Assembly (NCBI GenBank): GCA_024276605.1
Contig: JAJRWX010000008.1
Span: 62,001 to 126,000, forward strand
Origin: Planctomycetota bacterium
GTDB lineage: Bacteria > Planctomycetota > Phycisphaerae > UBA1845
DNA length: 64,000 nt
Reading direction: 5' to 3'
Made by a program: the position numbers and the translations under genes. Shown here piece after piece: positions 11,288-33,885 of the stretch; the stretch's first letter is position 1, and every line of letters begins with the position of its first letter. The notes beneath the pieces are model-generated. The model had not been told where the DNA came from. It saw only the letters and a program-made list of their open reading frames with translations, and did not search any database.

Positions 11288-11362
11288 TATAGTTATTTAA
11301 TGAAGGAATTAATCGGATATGGGCAAGTGCAAGCTTGTCACCTTAACATTTGGAGATACATC

Positions 11363-16290: not shown

Positions 16291-17905
16291 GCGGGGAAAA
16301 CGCAAGGTTTTAGCGATTGATTGGGATACGCGTACACTGCGCATCGCGCACGCGTTGGTCTCCAGTCGCGGTGTGAAGATCGATCGCCTGCTCAACGTGG
16401 GCATTCCTACCGAGGTTGATCCGAATGATGCACAACAATTTGGCGCACATATTCGTCGTGCGCTGGATCAGGAAGGCATCACCACCAAACACGCGGCTGT
16501 GGATATTCCGCGCGATCAGGCGGTGCTTAACACGTTGACTTTGCCCATGGCTGTGCCGGATGAACTGCCCGGCATGGTACAGATTCAGATAGCCAAGGAA
16601 CTTCCCTTTCCGGTGATCGATGCGGCGGTGGATTACACGGTGGGGTTTCCGGTAGGCGACGGCATGTCCTCGGAAGTGTTGGTGGCTGCGATTCGTCGCG
16701 AGGTGTTATCACAGTATGAAGCGATATTTTCAGCAGCGGATTTGAAGCTCGAACGGGTTGGTCTTCGCCCTTATGCCAACAAAGTGGCGGTGTGTGAACT
16801 GCTCAAGCATGCGATGCCTCATCTTGTGTTGTTTATCGATGTACGCCCGACGTTTATGGAAATTTCCGTATTGCGTCAGGGCGCGTTGGTCTTTTCGCGG
16901 GCTGCGTCGGTGGCGATGTCGGCTGGCGAGGATTTAACCGGTGCCTCTGCGTCGCTTAGTGAACCTATACCTCTAGCCACGAATGCCGTTGATGCGACAC
17001 TAAAATTTACGAATGTTGAGGCTCAGCCATCGAGTGCTTCTGCGATGGTGGCGTTGCTTATGGAAGTCACGCGATCGATTGAAGCGTATCGTGCATCAGA
17101 CGCTGGGGCTGAAATTGACCATGTGGTGATCGCAGGTGATACCGGTATGGAATCGCTGTTGTCGGATGCGATTCAAGCTCGTTTGCATGTGACGACGGAA
17201 ATGTACAACCCGGCGCGGACGTTTGGCTGGGAGCCTGATGAAGGGGCGGACGCGGCGGCCTTTGCGGCGGTGATGGGGTTGGTTCTGTCGGATGCCGGCG
17301 AGGACCAGCTTCATTTTGACTTTTTGCATCCTAAGAAAACGGAATCAGCCGCACGTAAGCGACTCAAGAAAGCGCCTTTGATCGCGGCGGCAGCGATGCT
17401 GTTTATCGTGGCCGGCGTCGTTGGCGTGGTGAAATTTACGGCGAACGATCGTGCCCGTTTAACTGATTTGGATGCACGAATAGCTGAGTTGACAGGTCAT
17501 CGCAAAGATAACAGAAAATTTCTTAAGCTTTACGAACAGTTGAATGATTTTGATAAGAGCCAGCGCGTGTGGGTGGATGTGCTGTTGGATGTGCTGTCGA
17601 ATTTTCCCTCGAATGAGGAAATGATTTTTGATCGTATTGATTTGAAGCAGTCAAAAGTCGGGGCTAAGGCCGACGAGCCGGCGCGCATCATCATTAGAAC
17701 CCGATGTAAACATCGTGCGACACCGGGTGAGTTGATCGAGAGTTTGCATGCGTATGTGCCGGAACAAGGCCATTGGCGAATTCGGGCAAACATGGGTTCC
17801 CAGTCTCCCAATATGAGAGAGAGTTATCCTTATGCGCAGGATATACGGATTGAGATTGTGTCAGTGAAGGAGAGCGGGAAGAAACGTCGCAAGGGTGTGA
17901 GTTAA
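16280..17905 (+). CDS. PilM-PilN fusion (GspL-role inner-membrane protein)
   Basis: Platform protein that links the cytoplasmic actin-like PilM module to the periplasmic PilN module. Residues about 8-330 show the PilM ATPase-like fold (VLAIDWDTRTLRIAHA at the start, AAVDIPRDQAVLNTL near 70). One transmembrane helix follows at about 364-386 (LIAAAAMLFIVAGVVGVV), then a short coiled coil and a PilN-like periplasmic domain. The GTG at 16280 is chosen because AAGGAG lies seven bases upstream; an ATG at 16256 would give eight more residues. It overlaps the gspK end. The fused arrangement equals GspL of classical T2SS. Confidence 0.85.
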   Translation: MSARRGKRKVLAIDWDTRTLRIAHALVSSRGVKIDRLLNVGIPTEVDPNDAQQFGAHIRRALDQEGITTKHAAVDIPRDQAVLNTLTLPMAVPDELPGMVQIQIAKELPFPVIDAAVDYTVGFPVGDGMSSEVLVAAIRREVLSQYEAIFSAADLKLERVGLRPYANKVAVCELLKHAMPHLVLFIDVRPTFMEISVLRQGALVFSRAASVAMSAGEDLTGASASLSEPIPLATNAVDATLKFTNVEAQPSSASAMVALLMEVTRSIEAYRASDAGAEIDHVVIAGDTGMESLLSDAIQARLHVTTEMYNPARTFGWEPDEGADAAAFAAVMGLVLSDAGEDQLHFDFLHPKKTESAARKRLKKAPLIAAAAMLFIVAGVVGVVKFTANDRARLTDLDARIAELTGHRKDNRKFLKLYEQLNDFDKSQRVWVDVLLDVLSNFPSNEEMIFDRIDLKQSKVGAKADEPARIIIRTRCKHRATPGELIESLHAYVPEQGHWRIRANMGSQSPNMRESYPYAQDIRIEIVSVKESGKKRRKGVS

Positions 17906-17935
17906 GACGGCATAAAGAAAAGCACTTGGTTGTTG

Positions 17936-19594
17936 ATGGACAAGAAAACGAAGATCCTGGCTGGTGTATTTGGTGTGATGGTGTTGTACATCATCGCCAC
18001 GAAAACGGTTTACCCGTGGCTGATTGAGCCTCTGGTGACGCTGGGGGATCGTGTCGTGCGTCGTGAGCTTGAGCTTGAAAAACTGGAGGAAAAGCAGGAG
18101 AAAGTAGCGTGGGCGGTTCGTGAGTATCGACGTTTGATGGATCGCATCGGGTCAGGTGATGTGGGTAAGGTTGAAAATGCCATACGTCAGCGGTTAAACA
18201 CACTGTTTGCCACACATAAACTTGAAGAAGCATCGACTTCTCCGACTAAACCACATGCCGACCGAAAGACTGGTGTCACCAAGATGACGCTTACGGTCAC
18301 GGCTGTTGGTTCATTGGAATCGGTGGTCTCGTTCATGCGTGACGTGAGCGAGTTACCTCAATTAATACGCATAGGAAATGCCTCAATCTTTCCAAAGAGT
18401 TCATCCCGCCGAGGTAAAAAAGCCAATCGTGAGCATGTCAATCTTCGGGTGCCGCTTGAGGTGTGGTTACTTCCTCAGCATAAAATGCTTGGCCGTAAGG
18501 TGGCGGATGCTGATTTGGATCAACCTGAAAAGATAGTTCGTCATACGCAGCGTGATTACTCATCGATATGGAAGCGGACGCCTTTTACGGAATTTGTGCC
18601 GTATAAGCCGTTGATTGCCTTCGCCGGTAAAAATCGATCCGTTGTGGTGGGCGAGAAGGTGACCCTGGCCGGTAGTGCGAAGGGTGGGGACGGTAAGTAC
18701 ACATTTGAGTGGTCCGGTGATCCCGGTTTGACGGGGGCGGAAACCAAGCGTGCTACGGTTGATACGTCGAAGGTGGGTACGTTTCATTATTCACTGACCG
18801 TGGCTGATGATAGTGATCATGTTTCTACGGCTCAAGTGACGGTGGATGTGAAGGAGAAGCCTAAGCCGGCCTTGGCGGAGGTGCCGCCGGAGGATAAGCC
18901 TGTACCGCAGCCGGTTGCGCCGGTGAAACGACGCGAGCGTTGGCCTAACGGTAAGCAAATGAAGATTCATGTGGCGTTGGTGCGCAGTCATGCGCAGGAT
19001 CGCTCGGGAGAAATACAGGTCTACGATTCCAAGCGTCGTGAGCGTTCGTATTATACGACCGGTGATGAGCTTGACGGGGGTACATTGGTTTTCGTTCATC
19101 CGCGTGCGGCGCTGGTACGCTGGGAAGATGAGTTTTTTGTCTATCCGGTCGGTGCGAAGTTAAGCGATGATCTACAGATAGCGGATGCGTCCGACTATCC
19201 TCGTTTTCAGACCATGGCTGAGCAAATACTAGCCTCGGAAAAAGTTCCGATTGAGACCCCCCGGGAGATCGTAGGGCCAACCGTAGGGGATGCTTCTGAT
19301 CATGCAGATTTGGTTGGTCCGCCCGCCCCGAAAGCGAAACCTGCGGAGGGTGCGCCGGTACAACAAGGTGGTGCCGGTATTCAGGTCGGTGGTGTGCCGG
19401 TAGTCGTACCTGCGAAAAGCCTTGAGGCTGCTTCGGTGCCGGCTCGGGGGGGTAAGCCGGTAGTTTTGCCGGGTCAGGCTGGTGAAGCTGAACAGTCTAA
19501 AGCGACCACGGCAAAGAAGAAACCTCAACCCACGAAAAAGCGTCCTAAGAAGCGCCGATCAAAGAAATTCAATAAACGTCGAGGTAGGCGGTAA
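17936..19594 (+). CDS. PilO-PKD-GspC/PilP HR-type fusion protein
   Basis: 552 residues from ATG 17936. Residues 1-200 resemble PilO/GspM: a TM helix at about 6-23, a charged coiled coil at 40-70, and a ferredoxin-like segment. Residues about 222-305 form a PKD/Ig-like domain (VTLAGSAKGGDGKYTFEWSG). Residues about 342-408 look like the homology region of GspC/PilP (RSYYTTGDELDGG, then LVFVHPRAALVRW), the part that binds the first secretin N-domain. A Pro/Ala-rich linker and a very basic Lys/Arg tail finish it. Family knowledge places it between the inner-membrane platform and the secretin. PilO and HR calls are by eye; PKD is clearer. Confidence 0.75.
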   Translation: MDKKTKILAGVFGVMVLYIIATKTVYPWLIEPLVTLGDRVVRRELELEKLEEKQEKVAWAVREYRRLMDRIGSGDVGKVENAIRQRLNTLFATHKLEEASTSPTKPHADRKTGVTKMTLTVTAVGSLESVVSFMRDVSELPQLIRIGNASIFPKSSSRRGKKANREHVNLRVPLEVWLLPQHKMLGRKVADADLDQPEKIVRHTQRDYSSIWKRTPFTEFVPYKPLIAFAGKNRSVVVGEKVTLAGSAKGGDGKYTFEWSGDPGLTGAETKRATVDTSKVGTFHYSLTVADDSDHVSTAQVTVDVKEKPKPALAEVPPEDKPVPQPVAPVKRRERWPNGKQMKIHVALVRSHAQDRSGEIQVYDSKRRERSYYTTGDELDGGTLVFVHPRAALVRWEDEFFVYPVGAKLSDDLQIADASDYPRFQTMAEQILASEKVPIETPREIVGPTVGDASDHADLVGPPAPKAKPAEGAPVQQGGAGIQVGGVPVVVPAKSLEAASVPARGGKPVVLPGQAGEAEQSKATTAKKKPQPTKKRPKKRRSKKFNKRRGRR

Positions 19595-19615: not shown

Positions 19616-22600
19616 ATGATAAGCCATCTGCAGAAACACGTTAAGCGTTTACAGGCTCAGTCTTTAGCACGCGCGCGGGGGTTGGATTGGTGGAAAACGG
19701 CGCTGATGGTTGCGTTTCTTTTTCCTTCGACTTCATTTGGACAGACACCTGCGAAGCGTCCGACAACGTTACCGAAACCTACTGCTCAAGATGCTGCTGA
19801 TAAACAGCGTAAGACTACAACTCGGCGGGTGAGTCCGCAGCGTCGTCGCACATCCAAGGCCGCGAAAAAAGGCGGCGTGCAGATACCGCCGGCTTCGGCC
19901 AGGGCACCGGGGAAGTCTGTCGTCAAGCCTGAAGATGCCAAAAGCAAAGCTACGATGACTGCGGCGGAGCGTGCGCAGCAGCGGCGCGAGGAAATTAAGG
20001 AGCGAAGACGCAAGGATAAGGCATCAAAGGCGGCAGGTGCATCGCGCAAACCACGCCTGCGCGATGGTCGTGTGGGTGGTAGCCAGGGTGGTTCATCTGC
20101 GAAAGATGCGACGATCAATATTCCACCGACGTTTTCTTCGATCACGCCGGAAGAGGGTAAATATCAATTCAGCATCGTTGACGGCACGTATGAAGATTTG
20201 ATTTCGATGGTGGCCAGGCAAACCGGTTTGGGTGTGATCGGTGTGAAGCCTCCGGATGGTAAGGTGAGCTTTGTTACGGAGGAAGAACTTTCGTTTGCCG
20301 AGCTGCTCAAGCGGATTCGTATGTTGTTGTTTAATTACAAGCCGTTGGAGCCTTATTGGTTGTTGCGACGGGAGACGCATCTGGAAGTGATTCGCGTGAA
20401 TGATTATTTGCGTGAGCTTGAGCCGGGGATGATGTATCGCAGCGTCGCTGAGTTTCGTGAGGCTAAACTGGCAGATGAAGAACTGGTGTTGGTCTTGTAT
20501 ACGCCGAAGTCCGGATCGTTAGCGGATTTGAAAATTGTTCGTGATTTCATGCCGGATTATGTACGGGTGACGCCGCTACAGAATTCCAATACGGTGGCGA
20601 TTTTTGCGCTGGCGAGTGATATTCGTAAATATCTGGATCTGGTGCCCATTTTGGTTTCACCGCAGGGACAGGATCCTCGTACGCTTGAAGTGATTAAGGT
20701 CAATCATATACCGCCGTCACAGGCTTATGAGAAACTGCAGGCGCTGATGGATTTGGGTGATGCTGGTGCACGTCCTCGGGCGCGGGCGGTGCGGGGTGTT
20801 AATAAGAGCGCGCTGGAAGGTGTCGCAGAACCGGCACTTAGCGTGGTACCTTCGGATGATCAGGGCGTGCTGATTGTTCGCGGGATGCGTAATAAGATTG
20901 ACGAGATCAAGTTGTTGTTGCCCTTTGTTGACGTAGATACAACAACTGATTTTCACCCTGTTGTCATCGATGTGAAGTATGCTGATCCTGAAGCGTTGGT
21001 GACCACATTACAGGATATATTAACACCGGTTGATCAAACGCCGAAGGTGAAACGACCGACACGCGGCAAGAAGCCTTCCGGAGGGCGCTCCGCTACGATG
21101 GATAAAATTCGCTTAATCACGCATCCGGTTGCGCGGGCGATTATTGTGATGGCTTCGAAAGAAGATGTAGCCCGCGTACGCCAACTGATTGAATCTTTTG
21201 ACATTGAAACGCAAGTCGGTCCGATTCGATTGGCGCTCGAGTATGCGGAAGCGGAAGATATTGTGGGGACCATATCCAAATTGATTGGTGGGCAGATTGG
21301 AAAGAAACCCAAGAAGGCCCGAACGCCGAGTGAAATGAAATCGGAAGTCGTGGCTGCGCCGAATGGTGATGCGATCTACTTCACCGGTACGCCGGAAGAT
21401 TTAGAGCAAGTGAAGCTTCTTCTTGTGGAACTTGATGTGGCGGGTGGTGAGGTCAAGCTCCATATCGTACTTTTGAAAAATCAGCTTCCTTCTTTTGTGG
21501 CGGGTATTTTACTGGAATATGAGAGTGGACGGGCCGGCTTGGCGGCAGGGCCTAGGCGTCCCGCGCGACCGAAAAGGCCGACGGGCAAGGTCAACACAAA
21601 AGGTAAGTTTACATCGGACGATGATAGCGGGCGTTTGTTTGTGCTGTGCAATGACGAGGAATGGGAAGCCTTTCAGCCGTTGATTGATGATCTTGAGTCA
21701 CTGCCGCAGGGAGCGGAGTTTGTTGTATTGCCGGTCGAACATATCTCGCCTGAGGTGGCGATTGAAAAAGTGTCGGCGCTGGTTGGAAGTAAAGAGACTA
21801 AGAGAGGCGCTGCGGCTTCGCTGGGTATACGTTATGAGACAGCGGATGGGGGGATGGTGGTGATTGGGGCGACGAATGCTCAGATTGCGCTGCTCAAGAA
21901 ATTGCTTACGCAGTTCGATCATCCTTCAGATATTATTCAGCGCGTCTTTGTCATCAAGCATCGGGGTGCGGCAGATATGATGGAGACGATCGAATCGCTG
22001 TTGGTGGATAGTGCGGGTGGTGGGCCGAAAAAGCCTCGACGAGGTAAGCCCAAGCCTGGGACGCCGAACACGGGTATAGACGACGGCCAGTTGAAAATCG
22101 TGCAGCTCGACAATCGCCTGATTGTGCGTACGTCTCCTGAGCAAATGGAAGAGGTGGCTAAGCTGATTCAGGAGTTTGATGTGGCGCGTGATACGCGCGA
22201 GATTCGCGTGTATGAGGATTTTCCCCCTGGTACGGATATTGTCGCTATCGCTGATTCGTTGCAGTCTTTGGTTTCATCCAAGGAAGGCGGTCCGGCGGTC
22301 AGGCCTAAGGTAGGCAAGAAGAATTCGAAGGCGATTGAAGGCGTAGAGTTTTTGCCTCAACCTTCTTCGGGCAAGTTGATTGTGATTGCTGCGTCGGCGC
22401 GATTCGCTGAGATCGAAGAACTTCTTGAAATCATCAGACCTACGGAAGACATTTTAGAGGTTGTTGTTGAATATGTTGACGTTACGCATGCCGACTCTGA
22501 GCAAATTGTGACTTTGATTGAACCTTTGCTGGCGATCAAAGTGCAACATTTGATTTTGACGGGTGTCATTAAAGAAGCGAGTGGGCGAACAGAATCTATG

Positions 22601-25600
22601 ACGCGTGTTGGCAAGAAGAAGAAACCGACGAGGTCGGCGGGTACGGGCGGTGATCTTTACGAATTGATACCTGATGCCCGTAACCATCGGATTGTCGTAG
22701 CGGCTGTTGAGCCGATTGTGGTTGAGGCGCGGAAGTTGATTCAGTCGTTTGATACGCCCTCTCAAGGGGATGAGATTCAGACGGTCTTTATTAAGATTCA
22801 ACATGCCGACCCGGCGGGACTGATTGAACTGATTGAACCACTGTTATCACTGAAGGTGCAGCAGATGGTGAGTGAAGGGCAGTTAGCTGACATGGTTGAT
22901 TCCGTGGGGGCTAGTAAGCCTAAAAAGCCCGGCATACGTATCGCCGGTCGAGCGGCGAAGGTGGATGATAAGCGGTTTCACATCATCGCGGATGATCGGA
23001 ATCGGCGTATCGTGATCGCGGCTCCGGAATCGATTATCGAAGAGGCGCGTCTGCTGGTATCGCAGTTTGATTTGCCGACGGAAAGTGGTGATGAGGTTGA
23101 GGTTGTCACGTTGGCTGTGCAGCATGTTGAGGTGGGTGAAATCGTTGAGCAGATTACTCCGCTCTTGGATATGAAAGTGCAGCAATTGGTGTTAGCGGGG
23201 ACGCTTTCAAGGGATGACGTGGTTGTGAGTCCGCCGAAGAGTAAACGTAAAGGCGGCAAAGTGACCGTTCCACGAAATCAAAGCTCGAAGCAGCCTGAGC
23301 GATATCATATGCAGGCTGATGAGCGCAATGGTCAGATTGTCCTGGCTGCTCCTCGTGCGATTATTGATGAGGCCCGCAGGTTGGTAGAGATGTTTGATAA
23401 GCCCGGTGACGATTCGGCGGCATTTGAGACTATTACGTTGCAAAACGCCGACGCCGGCGAGATGGTTAGTTCCATCCAGTCGCTGATGGGAAGTGACTCA
23501 CGTAGGAAGTCACCTAATTCCAGACTCAAGGGACAGGTGAAAATGCCGACTTCGACGGGTGAGTTTCGGATTGTCGAAGCACCCGGCGGGGCGGCTGTGG
23601 TTCTTCAGGGACCGGTCAAGCTTGTGGCGCAGGCTAAGGAATGGATTGCCCATCTGGATAGCATTGCCGGCGGCGCGCGGAGTTTGAAGATTTTTCAAAT
23701 TCAGCACATCGACATGAAAATGTTAGTGGACCTGATTGTGAATACGGTATCCGTACCGGCTAAGCGTACGGGTGTGCGGCGACCTAAGGCGAAAGCTCGA
23801 CCGACCGCCGGTGGTGGGCGTCAAATGCTGGCTGCGATGGAAGATGAAGAAGATGATGTGTTTGTAACCACGATTACACGAACGACGGATGATCTTTATC
23901 TGCGGGCGGATTTGATTGATCAAACGTTGATTGTCTCGGCTAGTCCATCGAAACTGACGGAAGTGGATCGCATCATTTCTAATTTGGATACGACGGATTC
24001 GCAGGAGTTAATCAACCCAGCGCCGGTCCCCAAATTTACATACACGTTAGAACATGTTGATGCCTACGATGCATCATATGAATTAGATGGCGTGTTATCC
24101 GTCTTGTGGGAACCCAGTGATGAGTTGCCTCATGTGGATTATGCCTCTTTTGGTGACATGTTGATTGTGCGCTACCCGCATGAGGAACGATTTGAAGAAA
24201 TCAGAGCGTTGATTCGTAAATATGTGGACAAGCCTAGCTCGTTAGCCCGCAGTCGCCCCAAGGCTTTTGCGGTGCCGGCTGGTATTAGTCCTAAGGATGT
24301 GGCGCTTTGGATGAAGATCAATCATCCGGAATTGGATATTGTAGTCGAGGATATAACGCCGCGCGAGGATCAAACGCATGGTGTGCAGGAGCTTGGTCCG
24401 CGGACGGGTGCGGTGAATCGATGTGTGATGCCACTTTCTTTTTCGGCAGCGTTGCAGGGGTTGATGGTGCCGGTCATAGGGCAAAAAGAGCCGCCGCCGT
24501 CGGGCAAAGCCTCATCGACTGATGGTGGTAAAGTTCCAGGCAAGAAATCGCCCCCAGTGAAAAAAGCCAAGCCTTCGGGTGATAGAGATGCGTTGTCCGA
24601 TTTAGTGCGGGATAAAGGGCGTGTCTTGCTTGACTCAGAGCCGGTGGAAAGTCACGACGTCGAGACAGTGACGACGGAACGTATGCCCACTAAAACCAAG
24701 AAAATCGCCTCGGCTGAGCAGGTGATTATTAAGTATGATGAATCCACCGGTGGCATGATCGTTGTTGGCAATCGGTCGGTATTGGAGGCTGTGCCGGATT
24801 GGCTTGAAGAATTAGAAGAGGAAATGAAAGACCTTCCTCGTCCGCCGGATATTCGCATTTATCGTGTTAAGTACATTGACGTATATAGCGCGACGGACAT
24901 TATCAATGAGATGTTCAATGCGACGCGACAGCAACGACAGCAAGCTTCGCGTGCGCAACAGCAGCAACAGCAACGAGCGCGACAGCAGCAAAAGCAGCAA
25001 CAGGGCAACAAGCGTCAAGCACAGCAGCAGAAGACTCAGCCTCAAGCGGTACCTCAGTTACCGCCGACTGCGGTGCGGGTGATGCCGAATCCGCGTGATC
25101 GGTCGCTGATTTTGCGTGCAGATACGAATCAGTATCCAGCTATTTTGAAGCTGTTATCTACGGTAGACCAACCTCGTCCCATCAACAGTGAGATGCGCAT
25201 TTTTCCGCTGGAGAAACTGAATGCTGCTGAGGTGGAAGCGCTATTAAAGGATTGGTTGGGCATGACCGCCACGCCGGCTCGTCCAACGTCGTCACGTGCG
25301 AAAAGTGGAGGTGCTCGTCGCCCTGGGACTCCGACGGCTCCGACTCGTAATAGTAGCAGTGGCGGACAGTTTCCCAGGCCGATCATGCAGCGGACGATTG
25401 CTGGTGATGAATTGGGTATTGATCCCAAGGACATCAAGCTTACGAGTAGCCCACGTAACAATACGATTATGGCGCTTGGTCCTAAGGCTGCGTTGGATTT
25501 CATTGGGGAGTTAATCGAAGACCTCGAAAGTAACGAGACCGCTGAGCGTACTTGGGTGCAATATAAGCTTGTGCATGCTGATGTGCCGACACTGATTTCT

Positions 25601-28396
25601 TATTTGCGTGGCCGGTATGCTGAAGGTGATGCGAAAAGTTCCGCCGGTCGCCGAAAAGACGATAGTGAATCGACGACGATTGCATCTACGGGTGGTTGGA
25701 ATTCTCCCACGGTGATTGGTTATCCGCCGTTAAAGATTCTATCCGTCGAAGGGACTACAAAGCAGCAAGAAGAAATTGCCGAGTTGATCACCGAGTTTGA
25801 CCGACCCGCCCAATCCGATTTTGAGGTAATCAACTTGGTCCATGCCGATGCCGCCTTAGTGGCAGAAACATTGACCTCGATATTTCGTGGAGTGAATTTG
25901 ACGCCGGAGAAGAAGCGTAGAAAAAAGAAATCCAAAACCAGCGGTACGACGCAGTCGCGATTCATCGGCCAAGAAGGCGGACGCATGGTGTTTTATAGTG
26001 CGCCTAAGCATTTACACAAGAAAATTCATGAGACGGTGCAGCAGCTTGAGGAGGCGGCTAAGGAGCGGGCTACGCTTCGAATTATTTCGCTGGCGCATGC
26101 TCGTCCCAGTGAAGTTTCGAAGGCGATCAATCAAGCCTATGCGTCGTCAGGATCGGATAAAAAAGGCGCCATGCCGGCCTTTACCGTGACGGGGGATGAT
26201 AGCACGAAACAGTTACTGGTGATGACTGATGACGACATGTTTTTAGAAATTGAGTCTCTGGTGAAATCGTTGGATAAGCCGCGCGAGATGGCTGCGGAGT
26301 TTCGTGTGTTTCGCCTGCAGTATGCTAATGCGCGTCGTATCTACGATACGTTAAGCAAGCTTATTGAAGATTACATCAGAGGTCTACCATCCGGAGAAAA
26401 GTTAGACGCCTTTGGGGCTGAGGTAGATGAAGAAGCCAATGCGATTATTGTGCTAGGCGGTCCGCTGATTTTTGGTTTTGTTGAGCACGCCTTGAAGCGT
26501 ATCGATACGCCTGAAAATGCTGAGCAACCGCCTGGGTTTTTTATGATCGCGCTGAAAAACGCAGATGCTAGAGAAGTAGCTGCCAACATTGCGCGCTTGT
26601 GGAGCGGAGAGGTGGGTGCCGCGGGTGAAAATCCGCCGGTTGTGGAGGCGAATGCTTCGCTCAATGTGTTGGTTGTTCGGGGTACACAGGAACAAGTCGA
26701 CCAGATCAGAAAGGATTTTGTTGATCCGCTGGAGGGTAACACGGCGGTGCAGCTTGTGACCGAGACGATCGTTTTGCAGCATATTCGTGCGGAAGAAGCG
26801 GCTGAGTTGATGACCACGATTTACGATAAGCGGCGGGAAGCGATGATAGAAATCAGCAAGGGGAGTCTGATTTCTCCGCATGAGTTTACGGTGGTAGTAA
26901 CTCCGGATAGCAGTACGAACACGCTTATTGTGCAGGCGAGCGAGGCAAACTTGGCTGACATCAAAGCGCGTGTCGCTGAGATGGATCAGGCTGATGTAGC
27001 CGCTCGATATGCGGTGACGACGAAGGTTTATGGTTTGATGTTCGCAGACCCGGGCGCTGTGGTGACAATTATTCGTGAACGTTCTCGCATGAAAGAGCAG
27101 CGCGGCGGGAAAAATAAGGTTTCCCTACAGGATTTAGTACTTGCGGTAGAAGAGCCGGCGACACAATCGGTAGCCGTGACGGCTAATGCAAATAATCACG
27201 AATGGGTTGAGACACTTATTGGTCAGCTTGATGATGAAGAAACGGCGTTAAGTCGCATCGATCAAGTAAAGACGATCAAACTAACTTACGCTGATCCGTT
27301 TATTGTTTCGGAAGCCATTACGCAACTATTTCGTGGCGGCGGCAAAGGCTCACAGTCCCAAGTGACGGCTGTGGCTGAGCCTGTGGCGCGTGTCGTTATT
27401 GTGACGGCTTCACAAGCGAACTTGAAGCGGATTGAGCGTTTGGTGGCGGAGCTGGATACCGAAGGCAGTAGTCAGCAAACCGTGCAAGTCGTGCACTTGG
27501 ACAATGCCGATGCGGAGTCCGTGGCTCGGACCTTGGATGATATATTCATTAAGTCTCAACCTAGCCGTCAGGGAAGTCAGGCGCCGCCGATTTCGATTTC
27601 AGCGCTAGGTGGTTCCAAGGCGGTATTGATTAAATCCAGTGCGGAAGATTATGCGGACATCAAGGCCGTTGTGTCGCAGTTGGACTCGGAGGAGGCGGGT
27701 ATCGGTGAATCGGTGCGTGTGATTACCCTATTGTATGCTGATGCCACCGAGGTGCAGCAGGCGATGCAGGAATATCTCAAAAAATCCGGAAAACAGAGTT
27801 CGGATGAATTGGTGGGCGATACGCGCATCAGCGTGTTGACGCAAAGTAACGGCTTGGTGGTTAGTGGTGGCAAGAGCCGTATTGATCAGATTGAGCAGTT
27901 GGTTCGTAAGTTGGATGAAGAAAGCGAAAAGGGCGTCGTTCCGCAGATCATCAAATTAAAATATGCAGAAGTTAAATATATTTTACCGCAACTCCAGGAA
28001 ATGTTTGTGGAGCAAAAGGGCGGCGGTCAACGTGAACGTGTTGTGCCGGTGATCGTGTCGAATGATTTGATGAATAGTCTCATCATCCGAGCTGCACCGG
28101 CTGATATAGCTGCGATTGAAGCGATCGTAAGCAAGCTGGATACCGAAGATGCTGCGTCGGTGACACCGTTTAAGATTGTTAAGGTGGCTTCGGGTATTAA
28201 TGTTGAAGATTTGGCGATGCTGTTGGAGACGAGTGTGAATGAAGGCATCAGGGCCTCCGCTCCGAAAGGAAAAGGACAGGGACGTAACGTCATCTCTTCG
28301 GTTACGATTCTGGCGGACAAGCGGACGAGTACATTGTTGTTGGGTGGTGATCCGTCTCATTTCAAAGAGATCGAAGAAATGGTTCAAGCGTATTAA
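19616..28396 (+). CDS. Giant secretin N-domain repeat protein without secretin barrel (2926 aa)
   Basis: A signal peptide (cleavage about G42, after LFPSTSFG) and a basic linker lead to an N0-like domain near residues 175-270 and then about 29 N1-type modules of 70-110 residues. Each has the pattern beta strand, 'ADA..V...L..L', a linker often rich in Lys/Arg/Gly, a 'D...N.LIV.A' strand, a helix, then 'LD' and frequently Pro. Linkers differ: one near residues 1772-1810 is almost pure Gln/Arg. No C-terminal secretin (PF00263-like) domain is seen. The reading frame stops at TAA 28394-28396 but continues in the same frame to 28648. Likely periplasmic, associated with the adjacent secretin; exact role unknown. 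Confidence 0.85.
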   Translation: MISHLQKHVKRLQAQSLARARGLDWWKTALMVAFLFPSTSFGQTPAKRPTTLPKPTAQDAADKQRKTTTRRVSPQRRRTSKAAKKGGVQIPPASARAPGKSVVKPEDAKSKATMTAAERAQQRREEIKERRRKDKASKAAGASRKPRLRDGRVGGSQGGSSAKDATINIPPTFSSITPEEGKYQFSIVDGTYEDLISMVARQTGLGVIGVKPPDGKVSFVTEEELSFAELLKRIRMLLFNYKPLEPYWLLRRETHLEVIRVNDYLRELEPGMMYRSVAEFREAKLADEELVLVLYTPKSGSLADLKIVRDFMPDYVRVTPLQNSNTVAIFALASDIRKYLDLVPILVSPQGQDPRTLEVIKVNHIPPSQAYEKLQALMDLGDAGARPRARAVRGVNKSALEGVAEPALSVVPSDDQGVLIVRGMRNKIDEIKLLLPFVDVDTTTDFHPVVIDVKYADPEALVTTLQDILTPVDQTPKVKRPTRGKKPSGGRSATMDKIRLITHPVARAIIVMASKEDVARVRQLIESFDIETQVGPIRLALEYAEAEDIVGTISKLIGGQIGKKPKKARTPSEMKSEVVAAPNGDAIYFTGTPEDLEQVKLLLVELDVAGGEVKLHIVLLKNQLPSFVAGILLEYESGRAGLAAGPRRPARPKRPTGKVNTKGKFTSDDDSGRLFVLCNDEEWEAFQPLIDDLESLPQGAEFVVLPVEHISPEVAIEKVSALVGSKETKRGAAASLGIRYETADGGMVVIGATNAQIALLKKLLTQFDHPSDIIQRVFVIKHRGAADMMETIESLLVDSAGGGPKKPRRGKPKPGTPNTGIDDGQLKIVQLDNRLIVRTSPEQMEEVAKLIQEFDVARDTREIRVYEDFPPGTDIVAIADSLQSLVSSKEGGPAVRPKVGKKNSKAIEGVEFLPQPSSGKLIVIAASARFAEIEELLEIIRPTEDILEVVVEYVDVTHADSEQIVTLIEPLLAIKVQHLILTGVIKEASGRTESMTRVGKKKKPTRSAGTGGDLYELIPDARNHRIVVAAVEPIVVEARKLIQSFDTPSQGDEIQTVFIKIQHADPAGLIELIEPLLSLKVQQMVSEGQLADMVDSVGASKPKKPGIRIAGRAAKVDDKRFHIIADDRNRRIVIAAPESIIEEARLLVSQFDLPTESGDEVEVVTLAVQHVEVGEIVEQITPLLDMKVQQLVLAGTLSRDDVVVSPPKSKRKGGKVTVPRNQSSKQPERYHMQADERNGQIVLAAPRAIIDEARRLVEMFDKPGDDSAAFETITLQNADAGEMVSSIQSLMGSDSRRKSPNSRLKGQVKMPTSTGEFRIVEAPGGAAVVLQGPVKLVAQAKEWIAHLDSIAGGARSLKIFQIQHIDMKMLVDLIVNTVSVPAKRTGVRRPKAKARPTAGGGRQMLAAMEDEEDDVFVTTITRTTDDLYLRADLIDQTLIVSASPSKLTEVDRIISNLDTTDSQELINPAPVPKFTYTLEHVDAYDASYELDGVLSVLWEPSDELPHVDYASFGDMLIVRYPHEERFEEIRALIRKYVDKPSSLARSRPKAFAVPAGISPKDVALWMKINHPELDIVVEDITPREDQTHGVQELGPRTGAVNRCVMPLSFSAALQGLMVPVIGQKEPPPSGKASSTDGGKVPGKKSPPVKKAKPSGDRDALSDLVRDKGRVLLDSEPVESHDVETVTTERMPTKTKKIASAEQVIIKYDESTGGMIVVGNRSVLEAVPDWLEELEEEMKDLPRPPDIRIYRVKYIDVYSATDIINEMFNATRQQRQQASRAQQQQQQRARQQQKQQQGNKRQAQQQKTQPQAVPQLPPTAVRVMPNPRDRSLILRADTNQYPAILKLLSTVDQPRPINSEMRIFPLEKLNAAEVEALLKDWLGMTATPARPTSSRAKSGGARRPGTPTAPTRNSSSGGQFPRPIMQRTIAGDELGIDPKDIKLTSSPRNNTIMALGPKAALDFIGELIEDLESNETAERTWVQYKLVHADVPTLISYLRGRYAEGDAKSSAGRRKDDSESTTIASTGGWNSPTVIGYPPLKILSVEGTTKQQEEIAELITEFDRPAQSDFEVINLVHADAALVAETLTSIFRGVNLTPEKKRRKKKSKTSGTTQSRFIGQEGGRMVFYSAPKHLHKKIHETVQQLEEAAKERATLRIISLAHARPSEVSKAINQAYASSGSDKKGAMPAFTVTGDDSTKQLLVMTDDDMFLEIESLVKSLDKPREMAAEFRVFRLQYANARRIYDTLSKLIEDYIRGLPSGEKLDAFGAEVDEEANAIIVLGGPLIFGFVEHALKRIDTPENAEQPPGFFMIALKNADAREVAANIARLWSGEVGAAGENPPVVEANASLNVLVVRGTQEQVDQIRKDFVDPLEGNTAVQLVTETIVLQHIRAEEAAELMTTIYDKRREAMIEISKGSLISPHEFTVVVTPDSSTNTLIVQASEANLADIKARVAEMDQADVAARYAVTTKVYGLMFADPGAVVTIIRERSRMKEQRGGKNKVSLQDLVLAVEEPATQSVAVTANANNHEWVETLIGQLDDEETALSRIDQVKTIKLTYADPFIVSEAITQLFRGGGKGSQSQVTAVAEPVARVVIVTASQANLKRIERLVAELDTEGSSQQTVQVVHLDNADAESVARTLDDIFIKSQPSRQGSQAPPISISALGGSKAVLIKSSAEDYADIKAVVSQLDSEEAGIGESVRVITLLYADATEVQQAMQEYLKKSGKQSSDELVGDTRISVLTQSNGLVVSGGKSRIDQIEQLVRKLDEESEKGVVPQIIKLKYAEVKYILPQLQEMFVEQKGGGQRERVVPVIVSNDLMNSLIIRAAPADIAAIEAIVSKLDTEDAASVTPFKIVKVASGINVEDLAMLLETSVNEGIRASAPKGKGQGRNVISSVTILADKRTSTLLLGGDPSHFKEIEEMVQAY

Positions 28397-28648
28397 CGTC
28401 TTGGACCCACCGGCGAGACGATCAAAATTATTCAACTTGGTTCAACGCCTGCCAACGAGGTGATTGCGCTGATCGATCAACTGAAAGGTACCTCGAGCCG
28501 AAGTCGGTCGGGTGGTCGATCGGGCAGTAGTGCAGGTAGAAGAGGTAGACGTAGCGGCCAAGGTAGCTCTAATCGACAAATGGGTGGTTCACGAAATTCA
28601 GGCTCAAGATCACGCGGTTCTCAGAGTCGACCTAATCGAAGACGGTAA
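28397..28648 (+). pseudogene. In-frame continuation of the giant protein after a TAA
   Basis: Directly after TAA 28394-28396, in the same frame, 83 codons continue a normal module: RLGPTGETIKIIQLGSTPAN and EVIALIDQLKG form the first half of an N1 unit. A Ser/Arg/Gly-rich basic tail follows, ending at TAA 28646-28648. GAA to TAA would be one change. The piece is therefore a lost C-terminus, a readthrough extension or the result of a sequence error. It has no good start of its own. Confidence 0.7.
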
Positions 28649-28751: not shown

Positions 28752-31700
28752 GTGATAATAGTAAGGGCAACGATGATGAAGAAGTTGCAAAAGCGGCGCA
28801 AAGGATCGGTATGGCGGATCGACAATGATGATGTCGATCAGAGGCGAAAGGTGCATCATAAAACGCAGGTCTATGGGCTTCGCGTAGGAGTAGGACGTGT
28901 GCTGCTCTCGATGTGCGCGCTCATGGCTTATGCGTTATCCAGTTCTTGCGCGTTTGGACAACCACAACAAGATGCCGCACCATCGGCTGAAAAACAACCT
29001 GCTGAGCCGACTGATGCAGGAAAGTCGAAGACCGGCCATCGAATAGATACGACCAATGTCAAGCTTTCCGGCGCTGATCTGTATTATGAGGTGGTTGGTA
29101 AGCAATTGATCTTGAAGGGTAATCAAGCCGACCTGGATTTAGTGGATGCGCTGATTACGGTATTGGAAGATGCGACGGAAGTCCCTGAACTTCGTGTGAT
29201 AACGGTGACGAGGAAGGATGCCAACGATATTGCATCAACGGTGGGGCCTGCGCTACGTAAAGTATTGTATGATCCGAACATTCGATCAGAGCATGAAGTG
29301 TCGGTGACGGCATTATCTTCGAATATTATTCTTATCTCAGCGTTACCGCGACATATCGATTTTGCCGTTCAGACTATCCTGCAGGTTGACGAAGTGGTGG
29401 ACACGCTTGGCCAATATGAGCAATTGGTGTTTACGATTAAGCATCGCCAAGCTTCTGAAGTGGCGGATGAGTTACGTGATATTTTAGGCAAGTTGAAAGA
29501 AAAGACGGGAGCGCAAGGGCCTAAGGGTGAAATACAAATCATTCCCAACAATGCGAACAATACGATTCTCGTCATCGCGCCGGAGTCGGACCGACTCACC
29601 ATACAGAATTTTATCAACACGATTGATGTAGAGCCGGCTAAGGGTTGGGGCGAGGTGAAGTTGACCGTGTTTCCGTTGCTACATTCCAAGCCTGAAGAGA
29701 TGTCGAAGGTCATCACCGATTTGTTAGCTACTGAGCAAGGGCAACAAGAAGCAGCTGAAGTGATCTTTCGGTTGAGCATAAGTAAAGCGATGCCCGACGG
29801 CAGTATGTTGGATATGTCGCCGATCGATTTGGGTAAACCGATGCGCATCATTGCCCATGCCGGAACCAATAGTTTGATTATCGCGACGGTGGAAGAAAAC
29901 GTCGGACCGATGAGCGAACTCATTCGTATGTTGGACGGCGTGGCGATCAGTGAGGAGGTTGATGTTCAACTGTTCCCGCTACGTTTTGCTGATGCTGAAA
30001 CGGTACGGGATGTACTGCGAAGTATGTTTGATGACGGCAAGACGCTGCCGGAGGATCCCGACGGTAGCGGGAACACTTCCGTACCGCAGGGCGATCAAGG
30101 TAAAGCGTTATCTTACAACATAGGTATTGGCGCAGACGCCCGGACCAACACGTTGATTATTTCCGGTAGACCTGAGCAGTTGCAATTGGCTGAGGTGGTG
30201 ATCAATAAGCTGGATCAACCTTCTTCCACGCTGAAGTTTCCTATTCGCTTCGTGCAGCTTGAATATACCGATGCAAGCCGTGTGGGTGATATTATCAAGG
30301 ATTTATTTGCTCAGCGACTGGAAACGGCTCAAACGATCAATGCCGGTCAGGTGGCATTAGCGCGAGACGATCTTTTCCTGACGGTTGATATGCGAAGTAA
30401 CTCATTGATCGTATCTGCGTCGGAAGAAAACTTTGCCGAGATTGAAAAAATTGTGCGTCAGCTTGATACGAAGCCGGCGAAATTGTTTGATCAGATTCGT
30501 ATCGTGAAGTGTGATCGACTGTCGGCGAAGAATATGAAGGAAAAAATAGACGAACTCTGGCAGCGCAAGGCGAGTCTGCGCCAGAATGAAGAATTGTTGG
30601 AAGACACGCCCATCCTCGTGGCGGATGGACGTAGTAACTCACTGGTTGTGGCTTCGAGTGTGGAGGATTTTGAAGAAATCCGTCGGTTAATCAAGCGTCT
30701 GGAAGCTCAACCGTTAATTGAGGATACGCGTATTTTCAAACTCACTTTTGCAGACACAGCCGTGTTGGCGGGTATGTTGGAAGAATTGTTTCAGGGTATG
30801 GAGGGGGCGTCAGAGTCGTTTACGGCACCGACGGTCATTGCTGATTCACGAAGTAATGCGTTGTTAGTGGCTGGGACGCGCGATAGTCTGGAGCGGGCTG
30901 CTGAGATTATCCCCAGGCTTGATGTCAAAGCCGGACCTAACACGGCAGCGATCAGAGTGTATCCATTGCATCATGGTAGTGCCATCAAATTGGCTCCACG
31001 TATGCAGGAATTGTTTGATTCACGGTCTGAGGGGCAGGATGTAGCGAGTACGCCGGTGGTGCTATTGGCTGATGAAGCTACAAACACCGTGGTGGGTAGC
31101 GCGTCGCGCGACGATCACGAGATCATCGTTGAGTTGTTACAGAAATTGGACCAACCCTCGACGCTGGCTAAGCAGTTCCAGATATTCCCGCTCAAGATGG
31201 CCAAAGCTGCACCGATTGCTGAAAAGCTGGAGAGCTTGTTTCAATCACAGGGAAGTGAGGGTCGAGCGGATGTGATTGCGATTGAAATCGATGAACGCAT
31301 CAATGCACTGATCGTCTGGGCGTCTCAGTCTGAAATGGACAATATTTCCAATATTATTACACGACTTGATTCTGCGAAGCCGGTGTTGGAGATGAAGGTG
31401 AAAGTGATTCAGTTGCGACAGGCGCTAGCTGAGGATTTTGCTGACGTGCTTGAGCAGACGCTCATTGGTGAAGAAGGCGGTGAAGAGGGTGAGGAAGCCA
31501 TCATCATCACCTTTGATGAGAAGCAGCCTGACGGCACCTACATTACACGCAAGTTATTGCGACAGGATATTCGCATTCAACCAGATCCGCGTACGAATTC
31601 GCTCATGGTCATGGCCCCGGCTGAGAGTATGGATATGCTGGAATCAATGATTTTGGATTTCGACCGGGTACATCCGATACGTTCCGAGCTTCGCTTGTTT

Positions 31701-33278
31701 CAATTGATCAACGCGGATGCTGAAACGATGGTTGATCGTTTGGAGGAGTTGTTCCAAACGGATGGCGGGGAGGATGGGCCTCAATCGCAGATTCAGTTTG
31801 GTATGCTGGGTGAATTTGAAATAGCCAGTGTAGGTCAAGACCTTCGATTTACCGCGGATGTGCGTACGAATACGCTCATTGCTGCCGGGGCGGAGGTTGA
31901 TTTGCGTATGGTCGAGTCCCTGGTGCAGTATCTCGATGCCCAGGAAGCTGAGGTTCGGGTGGTGGAAGTGATGCAGACAAACTACCGCGAAGCTTCACAG
32001 ATTGCTGATGCGTATCAAAACTTCATCCAACAAGAAGAAGATGTCTACGGTGATATTGATGATGAAGAAGCTCAGCGCCGTCGTATGGAGCGTCAGGTTT
32101 CCATCGAGGCGATTGGCGATGAAGAAGGTGGTACGAGTCATTTGATGATCGGGGCCAGTCGGGGGGCTTTTGAGCAAACGATGGATATGATTCAGCGGTT
32201 GGACCAACCGGAGCCTCAGGTGATGATCTCGGTGGTTATTGCGGAGATTACGCAAACGGATGATCTGGAGCTGGGTATTGAAATTGCCGGCCAGGATTTG
32301 CATTTTTCGGAAGAAGCGATTGTCGGGCCGAACGGTATTATTCAAGGGTCAGACTTTGACTTCGTGTCCGGGACTGATCTTGGCGCCGCGGGTTTGGGGC
32401 TTGGCGGTTTTAATTTTACAATTACTGGCGCAGATTTCAGCTTCTTGTTTCGCGCACTTCAGCAGGAAAGTCGGCTGGAAGTGTTGTCGCGTCCAGCCTT
32501 ACTCGTGCGTAACGGCGAGGAGGGTAGTATTACGATTGCTGATGAGGTGCCGATTGTTGAATCCTCGCGATTAAATGATACCGGTCAGACACAGTCTACG
32601 ATTGGTCGGGAAGATGTGGGTATTGTTTTGACAGCCACGCCGCAGATTAGTCCTGATGGTTATGTAACCATCGCGTTGACCCAAGAAATTTCTAACATTG
32701 GTGAGAATATTGTGCTCACTGAAGGTGTAGCCTCACCGATTTTCCAAACACGTGAGGTAGTGACCAATGTTACGGTGCGAGATGGCGAGACGGTGATCAT
32801 TGGTGGATTAATCCAAAAGCGTGTCTCACGAGGTGTAAATAAAGTACCGATTCTGGGTGATTTACCGTATATAGGTGTACTGTTTCGATCGATGAGTTCG
32901 AGTGAATCCAAGACTGAATTGGTCGTTGTGATGACGGTTGATATTCTTCGCACCGACGAGGATCTACATGATATGTCCATTGAAGAGCGTGACAATGCAG
33001 ATTTACCTGACTGGTTAAGGCAGAGTCCGTTAATGAAGAGTCTGAGGATTATGCCGGAAGATTCTGCGATGGGTCCGGAACCTGTAGATCTGCCTCTAGA
33101 TTATGGTCAGAAAAAGCCAACGCCGCAAAAACGACAAGAATTGAAACAGTACGGGCCTAAGCCAAAAACTTACGGCCCGATTATTTCCAGGCCTGAGCCT
33201 GTTACACGCGCAGAGCGGGCAGTGTATGGTCCCCGGATACTATCGAATCAGACCTTGGTTCAGGATTCCAGGCAATAG
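28752..33278 (+). CDS. gspD: T2SS outer-membrane secretin GspD with about 12 N-domain modules
   Basis: Forms the multimeric outer-membrane channel. 1508 residues against about 650-750 in classical GspD. GTG 28752 has GGAGG six bases upstream; ATG 28773 is an alternative. The signal segment ends SSSCAFG. Then about 12 N1-like modules, each ending in '..LD', run to about residue 1150. The secretin domain covers about 1155-1405 with VMISVVIAEI, EVLSRPALLVRNGEEG, VGIVLTATPQIS, FQTREVVTNVTVRDGETV and VPILGDLPYIGVLFR. A proline-rich tail with three YGP motifs may be the pilotin-binding S-domain (inference). Its modules resemble those of the 2926-residue neighbour. Confidence 0.95.
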   Translation: MIIVRATMMKKLQKRRKGSVWRIDNDDVDQRRKVHHKTQVYGLRVGVGRVLLSMCALMAYALSSSCAFGQPQQDAAPSAEKQPAEPTDAGKSKTGHRIDTTNVKLSGADLYYEVVGKQLILKGNQADLDLVDALITVLEDATEVPELRVITVTRKDANDIASTVGPALRKVLYDPNIRSEHEVSVTALSSNIILISALPRHIDFAVQTILQVDEVVDTLGQYEQLVFTIKHRQASEVADELRDILGKLKEKTGAQGPKGEIQIIPNNANNTILVIAPESDRLTIQNFINTIDVEPAKGWGEVKLTVFPLLHSKPEEMSKVITDLLATEQGQQEAAEVIFRLSISKAMPDGSMLDMSPIDLGKPMRIIAHAGTNSLIIATVEENVGPMSELIRMLDGVAISEEVDVQLFPLRFADAETVRDVLRSMFDDGKTLPEDPDGSGNTSVPQGDQGKALSYNIGIGADARTNTLIISGRPEQLQLAEVVINKLDQPSSTLKFPIRFVQLEYTDASRVGDIIKDLFAQRLETAQTINAGQVALARDDLFLTVDMRSNSLIVSASEENFAEIEKIVRQLDTKPAKLFDQIRIVKCDRLSAKNMKEKIDELWQRKASLRQNEELLEDTPILVADGRSNSLVVASSVEDFEEIRRLIKRLEAQPLIEDTRIFKLTFADTAVLAGMLEELFQGMEGASESFTAPTVIADSRSNALLVAGTRDSLERAAEIIPRLDVKAGPNTAAIRVYPLHHGSAIKLAPRMQELFDSRSEGQDVASTPVVLLADEATNTVVGSASRDDHEIIVELLQKLDQPSTLAKQFQIFPLKMAKAAPIAEKLESLFQSQGSEGRADVIAIEIDERINALIVWASQSEMDNISNIITRLDSAKPVLEMKVKVIQLRQALAEDFADVLEQTLIGEEGGEEGEEAIIITFDEKQPDGTYITRKLLRQDIRIQPDPRTNSLMVMAPAESMDMLESMILDFDRVHPIRSELRLFQLINADAETMVDRLEELFQTDGGEDGPQSQIQFGMLGEFEIASVGQDLRFTADVRTNTLIAAGAEVDLRMVESLVQYLDAQEAEVRVVEVMQTNYREASQIADAYQNFIQQEEDVYGDIDDEEAQRRRMERQVSIEAIGDEEGGTSHLMIGASRGAFEQTMDMIQRLDQPEPQVMISVVIAEITQTDDLELGIEIAGQDLHFSEEAIVGPNGIIQGSDFDFVSGTDLGAAGLGLGGFNFTITGADFSFLFRALQQESRLEVLSRPALLVRNGEEGSITIADEVPIVESSRLNDTGQTQSTIGREDVGIVLTATPQISPDGYVTIALTQEISNIGENIVLTEGVASPIFQTREVVTNVTVRDGETVIIGGLIQKRVSRGVNKVPILGDLPYIGVLFRSMSSSESKTELVVVMTVDILRTDEDLHDMSIEERDNADLPDWLRQSPLMKSLRIMPEDSAMGPEPVDLPLDYGQKKPTPQKRQELKQYGPKPKTYGPIISRPEPVTRAERAVYGPRILSNQTLVQDSRQ

Positions 33279-33288
33279 GTGAGGTATT

Positions 33289-33885
33289 GTGGCGACTTAT
33301 CAAAGTAAGCAAGCAGCTCTGTGTGTTGGTTTGATCGTTATGAGTGCCCTTTGCGGTTGCCAGACCGATGGCACGCGCAGTGCTTCCTACGCCATTGTCG
33401 GTTCGTCTGATGGTCACAAGAAATCGACTGCACGGTTGACGAAGAAAAGTCGGCGTGATCGAACCGGAAGAATCCGTTATATTCGGTGTTTATATGATCA
33501 AAAGCCGTGGGTCAGCGCGGATAAAGCCGGCGATCGTGACCCGGAAGGCATTCATTATCGCGTATTTCTCCAGCCGGTGAGTAAGGATGGCTTTAGTAAG
33601 AGTGTCCTACAGGATGGCGAATTATACATCGAAATGTACCGTATCGATCGTGAGAGGGATGGTACCACTACTCGCGTATTGGTTAGCGATTGGCGGTATC
33701 CAACGAGCACGTTCCAACCCCTTCGCTCGAAAGTTCTCGGCATGGGATACCATATATGGTTACGTTGGGCGAAAAAGAGCTTAGCCGGTAAGGATGTCGA
33801 ATTTGTTACCTGGTTTGAAGACTCTTACGGCAAAAAAGTCCGTTCGAGTACGAAACGTTTTCTAGTTCCCAGCTATGTGCCTTAG
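33289..33885 (+). CDS. Small lipoprotein after gspD, possible pilotin
   Basis: 198 residues from GTG 33289, with GAGG four bases upstream. The lipoprotein signal VMSALCGC places the lipidated Cys at residue 24. The mature part is basic at first, then a compact mixed domain with many aromatic residues (GMGYHIWLRWAKKSL, EFVTWFEDSYGKKVR). I do not recognise the family. Ten bases after gspD in the same direction, it is placed where outer-membrane pilotins or accessory lipoproteins often are; that function is inference only. Confidence 0.7.
   Translation: MATYQSKQAALCVGLIVMSALCGCQTDGTRSASYAIVGSSDGHKKSTARLTKKSRRDRTGRIRYIRCLYDQKPWVSADKAGDRDPEGIHYRVFLQPVSKDGFSKSVLQDGELYIEMYRIDRERDGTTTRVLVSDWRYPTSTFQPLRSKVLGMGYHIWLRWAKKSLAGKDVEFVTWFEDSYGKKVRSSTKRFLVPSYVP

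What the first reader, a model, noticed from the sequence alone, without database searches (positions are those of the whole stretch)
19616..28396. A 2926-residue protein made of about 29 secretin N-type modules and no pore
Seen: repeated modules of strand, 'ADA..V..', linker, 'N.LIV.A', helix, 'LD(P)' from about residue 270 to the end, and no C-terminal secretin block. Known: ordinary GspD has an N0 and up to three N1-type domains. A standalone array this long, next to a true secretin, is outside the described T2SS parts list. Inference: it could build a long periplasmic tube, collar or sorting scaffold matched to a wide planctomycete periplasm. This is my best candidate for an undescribed system.
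Basis: partly seen in the sequence, partly recalled or inferred. Interest (0 to 1): 0.88.

Follow-up and report, generated by a model that had tools for sequence, protein, structure and literature searches.

The report
Giant secretin split across two genes
The 2926-residue protein is the inner part of an enormous type II secretion channel of uncultured planctomycete relatives; sister lineages make the whole channel subunit (about 40 ring-type domains plus the pore) as one protein of 4,100-5,000 residues, whereas here it is made as two proteins that seem to share one domain at their joint.

Summary
The idea of a free-standing array of an unknown system does not hold. A is the N-terminal two thirds of a giant secretin. 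In sister families of the same order one ORF of 4144-4890 aa contains the N-terminal region, 30-40+ N1 modules and the barrel. A plus the next gene B (1508 aa, 12 N1 + barrel) matches it module by module in the same order. Of 39 bounded barrel or array ORFs examined, 37 have an N1-array ORF just upstream. New here: (i) the A|B joint falls inside one N1 module, A-type proteins ending with its beta1-alpha1 half and B-type proteins starting with its beta2-beta3-alpha2 half; (ii) fused orthologues carry signal-peptide-like segments ([AG]x[AG]|Q) inside that loop, and a related segment lies inside A (1599-1623); (iii) the window's stop is lineage-specific (Glu codon to TAA), with 83 conserved-frame codons behind it. 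Likeliest function: periplasmic tube of a T2SS secretin matched to a very wide periplasm. The domain kind is known; size, split-domain joint and internal signal-peptide-like segments appear undescribed in the literature I could search.

The parts
19616..19741 (+). A: N-terminal signal peptide, cleavage proposed after Gly42 (..STSFG|Q)
   Evidence: read from the sequence; no predictor available
20153..20398 (+). A: N0 domain (residues ~180-261)
   Evidence: AF2 model; 1.8 A over 77 residues to GspD N0 4jtm, Z 10.3
20474..28393 (+). A: 29 N1-type modules, residues ~287-2926 (block 1 to ~1579, block 2 from ~1702)
   Evidence: Pfam 22 stretches; profile modules; AF2
24260..24352 (+). A: beta1-alpha1 half of the N1 module split at the block 1/2 boundary (residues 1549-1579)
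   Evidence: sequence; the three-gene forms L033/L142 and L129 end their first gene here
24410..24484 (+). A: internal conserved CVLP...GQ-type segment resembling a signal peptide (residues 1599-1623)
24719..24826 (+). A: beta2-beta3-alpha2 half of the split module opening block 2 (residues 1702-1737)
28394..28396 (+). in-frame TAA ending A; a Glu codon in the two same-genus relatives
28397..28645 (+). 83 codons still open behind the stop: beta1-alpha1 half-module (28415-28489) and basic Arg/Ser/Gly tail, net charge +15; part of the ORF in congeners
28752..33278 (+). B: secretin subunit, 12 N1 modules + barrel (1508 aa)
28890..28958 (+). B: signal peptide core (..SSSCAFG|Q); the true start is probably downstream of 28752
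   Evidence: read from the sequence
29070..29171 (+). B: orphan beta2-beta3-alpha2 half-module (residues 107-140), proposed complement of A's terminal half
32454..32951 (+). B: secretin barrel, PF00263 E 2.8e-44
10085..11287 (+). GspF (PF00482)
11300..11824 (+). GspG major pseudopilin (PF08334)
11937..12698 (+). GspH-like pseudopilin
   Evidence: GspH below cut-off, N_methyl at cut-off
12711..13571 (+). probable GspI-like pseudopilin
   Evidence: weak, E 0.13
13568..14518 (+). GspJ-like
   Evidence: weak, E 0.0057
14515..16290 (+). GspK (PF21687/PF03934)
16256..17905 (+). GspL/PilM-like (PF11104)
17930..19594 (+). GspM-like with a PKD domain and basic C-terminal tail
   Evidence: T2SSM_b below cut-off
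33289..33885 (+). 198-aa ORF just behind B, no family

Best explanation
A and B together are one T2SS secretin of about 4,400 residues made as two chains. B forms the outer-membrane barrel and the outer third of the periplasmic stack; A forms the inner two thirds and places the N0 domain at the inner-membrane platform (GspL/M/F side). The two chains join in register because one N1 module is shared: the beta1-alpha1 half at the end of A-type proteins pairs with the beta2-beta3-alpha2 half at the start of B. If modules stack as rings, as in GspD and PilQ, the product is a tube of about 42 N1 layers plus N0, in the order of 100-170 nm, suited to a wide and variable periplasm. Shown here: modules, N0, collinearity with single-chain orthologues, operon, half-modules at the termini. 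Inferred: physical A-B pairing, ring stacking, tube length, secretion function.
For: Single-chain orthologues with array + barrel in 4144-4890 aa in six order-level relatives, and in more families of the class (ORFs 4217-5073 aa), including a one-contig genome (G134, 4634 aa). Module-by-module collinearity of A+B with fused proteins: path scores 74-95, shuffled module orders 34-38 on average with maxima 46-52. The split point falls at linker 2 of the fused proteins. 37 of 39 bounded ORFs have an N1-array ORF <900 bp upstream, median gap 161 bp; the two exceptions are a locus with a run of N (L123) and a probable chimeric contig (L126). Downstream proteins start with a C-half in 34 of 40; upstream tails end with an N-half in 24 of 40 by score, several others by eye. 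AF2 of a fused junction (L130): GspD N1-N2-N3 (5zdh) aligns over model 160..480 with 189 residues, which needs both halves of the split module to be counted. T2SS genes upstream in split and fused loci. N0 and N-domain folds.
Against: No experiment; no multimer prediction. The AF2 models have low pTM (0.30, 0.29), so the arrangement of neighbouring modules is undetermined and ring stacking is untested. The half-module at A's end lies behind the window's stop codon, so this particular genome may lack it, or the stop may be a sequencing or assembly error. Pfam T2SSC (GspC) was not found in the genome. Termini counts come from related sequences, not independent events.
Confidence: 0.8

Rival explanations
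1. A is a free periplasmic scaffold, collar or sorting protein that only neighbours the secretin.
For: A has no pore and its own signal peptide; it is a separate gene in the window's clade.
Against: In a sister clade the same modules in the same order are covalently continuous with the barrel; A has an N0 domain and B shows none before its first module; the boundary cuts a module in half.
Confidence: 0.1
2. The internal signal-peptide-like segments are functional: the long chains are polyproteins cut by signal peptidase I into two or three blocks that then dock through the split modules.
For: In fused subclade 1 all 11 distinct rows keep a hydrophobic core followed by [AG]x[AG]|Q in linker 2; shuffled linkers give a comparable pattern in 11-32%. 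Most linker-1 segments keep the CVLP...[AG]Q pattern in both clades. Same -3/-1/+1 residues as the apparent signal peptides of A, B and the three-gene forms. Three-gene genomes have gene boundaries with signal peptides at the same places.
Against: A segment in the middle of a chain under translocation faces the wrong way for signal peptidase unless a loop forms. In fused subclade 2 the cleavage motif is gone while a hydrophobic stretch stays. Sequence identity of the segment (0.31) is no higher than around it (0.28-0.36).
Confidence: 0.35
3. The internal segments are relics of gene fusion without present function.
For: Fused linker 2 reads as the tail of an A protein followed by the signal peptide of a B protein; basal lineages L119 and L128 are split; loss of the motif in subclade 2.
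Against: Retention of hydrophobic core and cleavage motif in every subclade-1 lineage and of the CVLP element across split and fused clades is more than a decaying relic should show.
Confidence: 0.45
4. The blocks are made separately by translation starts inside the long frame.
For: Some rows have ATG/GTG/TTG near the segments; the window has AGGAG-like DNA before the CVLP segment.
Against: No start codon position is conserved; several rows have none in the n-region (L095, L154, L156).
Confidence: 0.07
5. A is a degenerating fragment: the split and the stop mark a dying gene.
For: Lineage-specific TAA in the window; in-frame TAG in L097.
Against: The array is long, open and aligned one-to-one with a congener (39 of 39 modules best matches); A-type ORFs of 2384-3270 aa recur across the family.
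Confidence: 0.05

Closest known systems
GspD, T2SS secretin (ETEC GspD, PulD, XcpQ)
   Same: N0 followed by N1-type modules, C-terminal barrel (in B or in fused orthologues), gspF/G/K/L-type neighbours; best fold matches 6hcg, 4jtm, 5zdh, 4e9j
   Different: GspD has N0 plus three N-domains in one chain (my knowledge); here ~42 N1 modules over two genes, joint inside a module, signal-peptide-like segments between blocks
Thermus thermophilus PilQ (six rings N0-N5)
   Same: extra N-rings matched to a wide periplasm (~70 nm), tube ~35 nm (PMC4463427, PMC5745081)
   Different: six rings, one chain of 757 residues; T4P/DNA uptake; about seven times fewer modules
Other Planctomycetota secretins, mostly 400-1500 aa
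   Same: same phylum, Secretin_N + barrel
   Different: at most 21 Secretin_N matches per genome in the sample, against 52-55 in the two f9 genomes that carry a giant; outside the giant clade in the tree

Membership tests
T2SS secretin GspD (for the pair A+B) | C-terminal secretin barrel | tested here: met
   B: PF00263 E 2.8e-44
T2SS secretin GspD (for A alone) | C-terminal secretin barrel in the same chain | tested here: not met
   no PF00263 in A at E<=1; so A is not itself a secretin but a secretin segment
T2SS secretin GspD | N0 domain at the inner end | tested here: met
   A ~180-261, Z 10.3 and 1.8 A to 4jtm; not seen by Pfam
T2SS secretin GspD | N1-type (KH-like) modules | tested here: met
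T2SS secretin GspD | T2SS operon with pseudopilins and platform proteins | tested here: met
   GspF, G, K, PilM/L above cut-off; GspK and PilM/L also in fused loci
T2SS secretin GspD | GspC partner for N0 | tested here: inconclusive
   no PF11356 match in the whole genome; may be too diverged
T2SS secretin GspD | GspE ATPase in the genome | tested here: met
   several PF00437 ORFs, none beside the operon
T2SS secretin GspD | ring oligomer in the outer membrane | not testable with these tools
   needs cryo-EM/cryo-ET
T4P secretin PilQ | AMIN domains before N0 | tested here: not met
   none listed by Pfam for A or B at E<=1
Signal-peptidase-processed polyprotein | conserved cleavage-type motif behind a hydrophobic segment at block boundaries | tested here: inconclusive
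   kept in fused subclade 1, lost in subclade 2
Signal-peptidase-processed polyprotein | cleavage in vivo | not testable with these tools
   needs N-terminal proteomics

The most novel reading that the evidence does not exclude
Phycisphaerae build a trans-periplasmic secretion tube of more than 100 nm from two or three consecutive chains (separate genes or a cut polyprotein) that join end to end by complementing halves of one N1 domain, so that the length of a secretin can be extended by adding blocks.
Probability: 0.35. Interest if true: 0.88.

Novelty: new variant of a known kind. Interest (0 to 1): 0.74.

Why it matters
Secretins of known structure have N0 and up to about five further N-domains; here a subunit has about 42. 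It offers a concrete answer to how a T2SS could reach across the wide, variable planctomycete periplasm, a natural experiment (two-gene, three-gene and single-gene forms of the same machine) on how ring stacks are built, and an assembly rule, complementation of a split ring domain, that can be tested in vitro with two short peptides.

Tried and rejected
Charge gradient along the array as a lumen signal: B modules are more acidic than A modules, but fused orthologues show only a weak trend near the barrel, so I make no claim. Internal translation starts: no conserved start codon. GspC-like domain in the GspM protein: looked plausible by eye, not supported by Pfam. Geometry between modules from AlphaFold2: low pTM, module orientation not interpretable. 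L126 'split' label in the tree: its ORF is joined to an RpoB-like sequence, probably a misassembly, and is discounted; L155 carries a barrel without detectable N1 modules in its locus. The stronger claim that the signal-peptide-like segment is more conserved than its surroundings failed: identity 0.31 against 0.28-0.36. Literature searches for a giant or split secretin, or secretins in Phycisphaerae, returned nothing relevant; the library lacks most subscription journals and all preprints.

Full report
WHAT IS THERE. ORF A (19616-28396, +, 2926 aa) is one open frame. Pfam finds Secretin_N with E 1e-167 in 22 stretches and no barrel; the next gene B (28752-33278, 1508 aa) has 11 Secretin_N stretches and the barrel PF00263, E 2.8e-44. 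In the whole genome 30 of 31 Secretin_N matches fall in these two ORFs; one is in a 639-aa ORF elsewhere. A profile built from the modules finds 27 modules in A and 12 in B. One more module right after N0 is seen in the AlphaFold2 model (residues ~287-349) and one diverged module at 1473-1540 (detected in congener L035; coordinates). Single modules fit N-domains of solved secretins at about 2 A over ~60 residues.

SURROUNDINGS. Upstream on the same strand lie GspF, GspG, a GspH-like, a weak GspI-like and GspJ-like, GspK, a PilM/GspL-like and a GspM-like protein with a PKD domain. GspE-type ATPases lie elsewhere in the genome. No Pfam GspC was found. Behind B is a 198-aa ORF without a family, then unrelated genes.

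HOMOLOGUES. The first 428 residues of A have relatives in 34 of 40 related genomes. In the window's family the frames are mostly 2384-3270 aa (shorter ones, 1573-2085 aa, may be contig ends); in other families of the order many are 4144-5021 aa. Reading those loci shows why: in six relatives the frame is one protein of 4144-4890 aa with 30-38 modules at a strict threshold (37-45 at a relaxed one) and a barrel at its C terminus. In the window's family, wherever the locus is complete, the same content is two genes (~2700-3270 + ~1500-1720 aa). L033/L142 and L129 have three genes. G028 has a 5021-aa A with 55 modules plus an 1800-aa B.

COLLINEARITY. Aligning the order of modules, A+B against a congener pairs 39 of 39 modules, all row-best. 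Against fused proteins of other families the path scores are 74-95, shuffled module orders 34-38 on average with maxima of 46-52. The A/B break falls at or next to a long linker of the fused protein. A and B are therefore the two parts of one protein by descent.

DISTRIBUTION. In 294 genomes drawn from the phylum, most secretin frames are 400-1500 aa; listed frames above 4000 aa occur only in the same class, among them a one-contig genome, so they are not assembly products. A Secretin_N count over 59 genomes gives at most 21 matches except for two same-class genomes with 52 and 55. Named hits are mostly Phycisphaerae or otherwise unclassified Planctomycetota MAGs. A barrel tree puts the giants (82 rows, 100/98) apart from short secretins, with one split clade (41 rows, 100/96), one fused clade (35 rows, 98/92) and a few basal lineages of both kinds. 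L126 and L155 in that tree should be discounted.

THE JOINT. The N1 module is beta1-alpha1-loop-beta2-beta3-alpha2, and inserts sit in the alpha1-beta2 loop. With half-profiles, 34 of 40 downstream proteins begin with an orphan beta2-beta3-alpha2 half and 24 of 40 upstream tails end with a beta1-alpha1 half; several others end so by eye, followed by a basic Arg/Gly/Ser tail. Whole modules would give the opposite. In fused orthologues the two halves lie on either side of linker 2, e.g. L130: VSVIKLKSMRPEDAKKLIEDMKN - linker - LTIQTGPDGLIVIGNEEDRAVIAQMMALLD. AlphaFold2 of the L130 junction gives strands and helices of both halves, and the three N-domains of GspD (5zdh) align over 160..480 with 189 residues. 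The two intact modules in that range can supply only about 130 of these, so the halves are being matched as one N-domain. This is support, not proof.

INTERNAL SIGNAL-PEPTIDE-LIKE SEGMENTS. Fused linker 2 reads as the tail of an A protein (half-module, Arg/Gly-rich run, in subclade 1 an RGDxxWTxxRRYE motif) followed by the signal peptide of a B protein, e.g. L147 MIRTTTIAATLPVFMMNVALQSAVA|QTD. All 11 distinct rows of fused subclade 1 keep a hydrophobic core and [AG]x[AG]|Q; shuffled linkers show a comparable pattern in 11-32%. Subclade 2 keeps a hydrophobic stretch but not the motif. Linker 1, inside A in the window (1599-1623, AVNRCVMPLSFSAALQGLMVPVIG|Q), keeps a CVLP...GQ element in both clades, and the three-gene genomes have a gene start with a signal peptide at that boundary. 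So the long frames arose at least in part by fusion of separately secreted blocks. Whether the segments are still cut is open; internal starts are disfavoured.

THE STOP CODON. The window's TAA at 28394-28396 replaces a Glu codon of L034 (GAA) and L035 (GAG). The frame continues for 83 codons, ending like the congener's. It is a recent mutation or a sequence error; 2926 aa is thus a truncated length.

HOW IT PROBABLY WORKS. N0 of A faces the inner-membrane platform, A's and B's modules stack outward, B's barrel sits in the outer membrane, and pseudopilus-driven cargo moves through. T. thermophilus PilQ with six rings is ~35 nm long in a ~70 nm periplasm (PMC4463427; PMC5745081). By a similar rise per ring, about 42 layers would give 100-170 nm; this is arithmetic on an assumption. 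Planctomycetes have strongly enlarged periplasms and outer-membrane crateriform structures at contact sites with the inner membrane (PMC5394234); a link is speculation.

NOVELTY. Fold, barrel and operon are T2SS. The size, the split-module joint, the one/two/three-gene forms and the internal signal-peptide-like segments are, as far as I could search, not described.

Noticed in passing
window 28394-28645: Lineage-specific in-frame stop (Glu codon to TAA) with 83 conserved-frame codons behind it.
   Followed up: yes
L097:3330-3345: In-frame TAG in the Gln-rich alpha1-beta2 loop of a block-2 module, splitting an A-type ORF; a second case of a lone in-frame stop in the array.
   Followed up: partly
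window 24410-24484 and linker 1 of ~30 relatives: Conserved CVLP(A/L)(S/A)..GQ element in an otherwise variable linker; in some fused proteins a second copy follows with CPxC/CxLC motifs (L022, L158), hinting at a small metal-binding site.
   Followed up: partly
L022, L027, L147, L151, L154, L158 linker 2: RGDxxWTxxRRYE motif upstream of the internal signal-peptide-like segment, the best conserved part of the linker (mean identity 0.53).
   Followed up: partly
window 17930-19594: GspM-like protein with a PKD domain and a long basic tail resembling the basic tail of A-type proteins.
   Followed up: no
L126:5576-11278: ORF joining an RpoB-like N-terminal part to a secretin C-terminal part in a MAG chromosome (CP070685.1), probably a misassembly.
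   Followed up: partly
L021/L078 (G028): 5021-aa A-type ORF with 55 modules plus an 1800-aa barrel protein: the longest array seen.
   Followed up: partly
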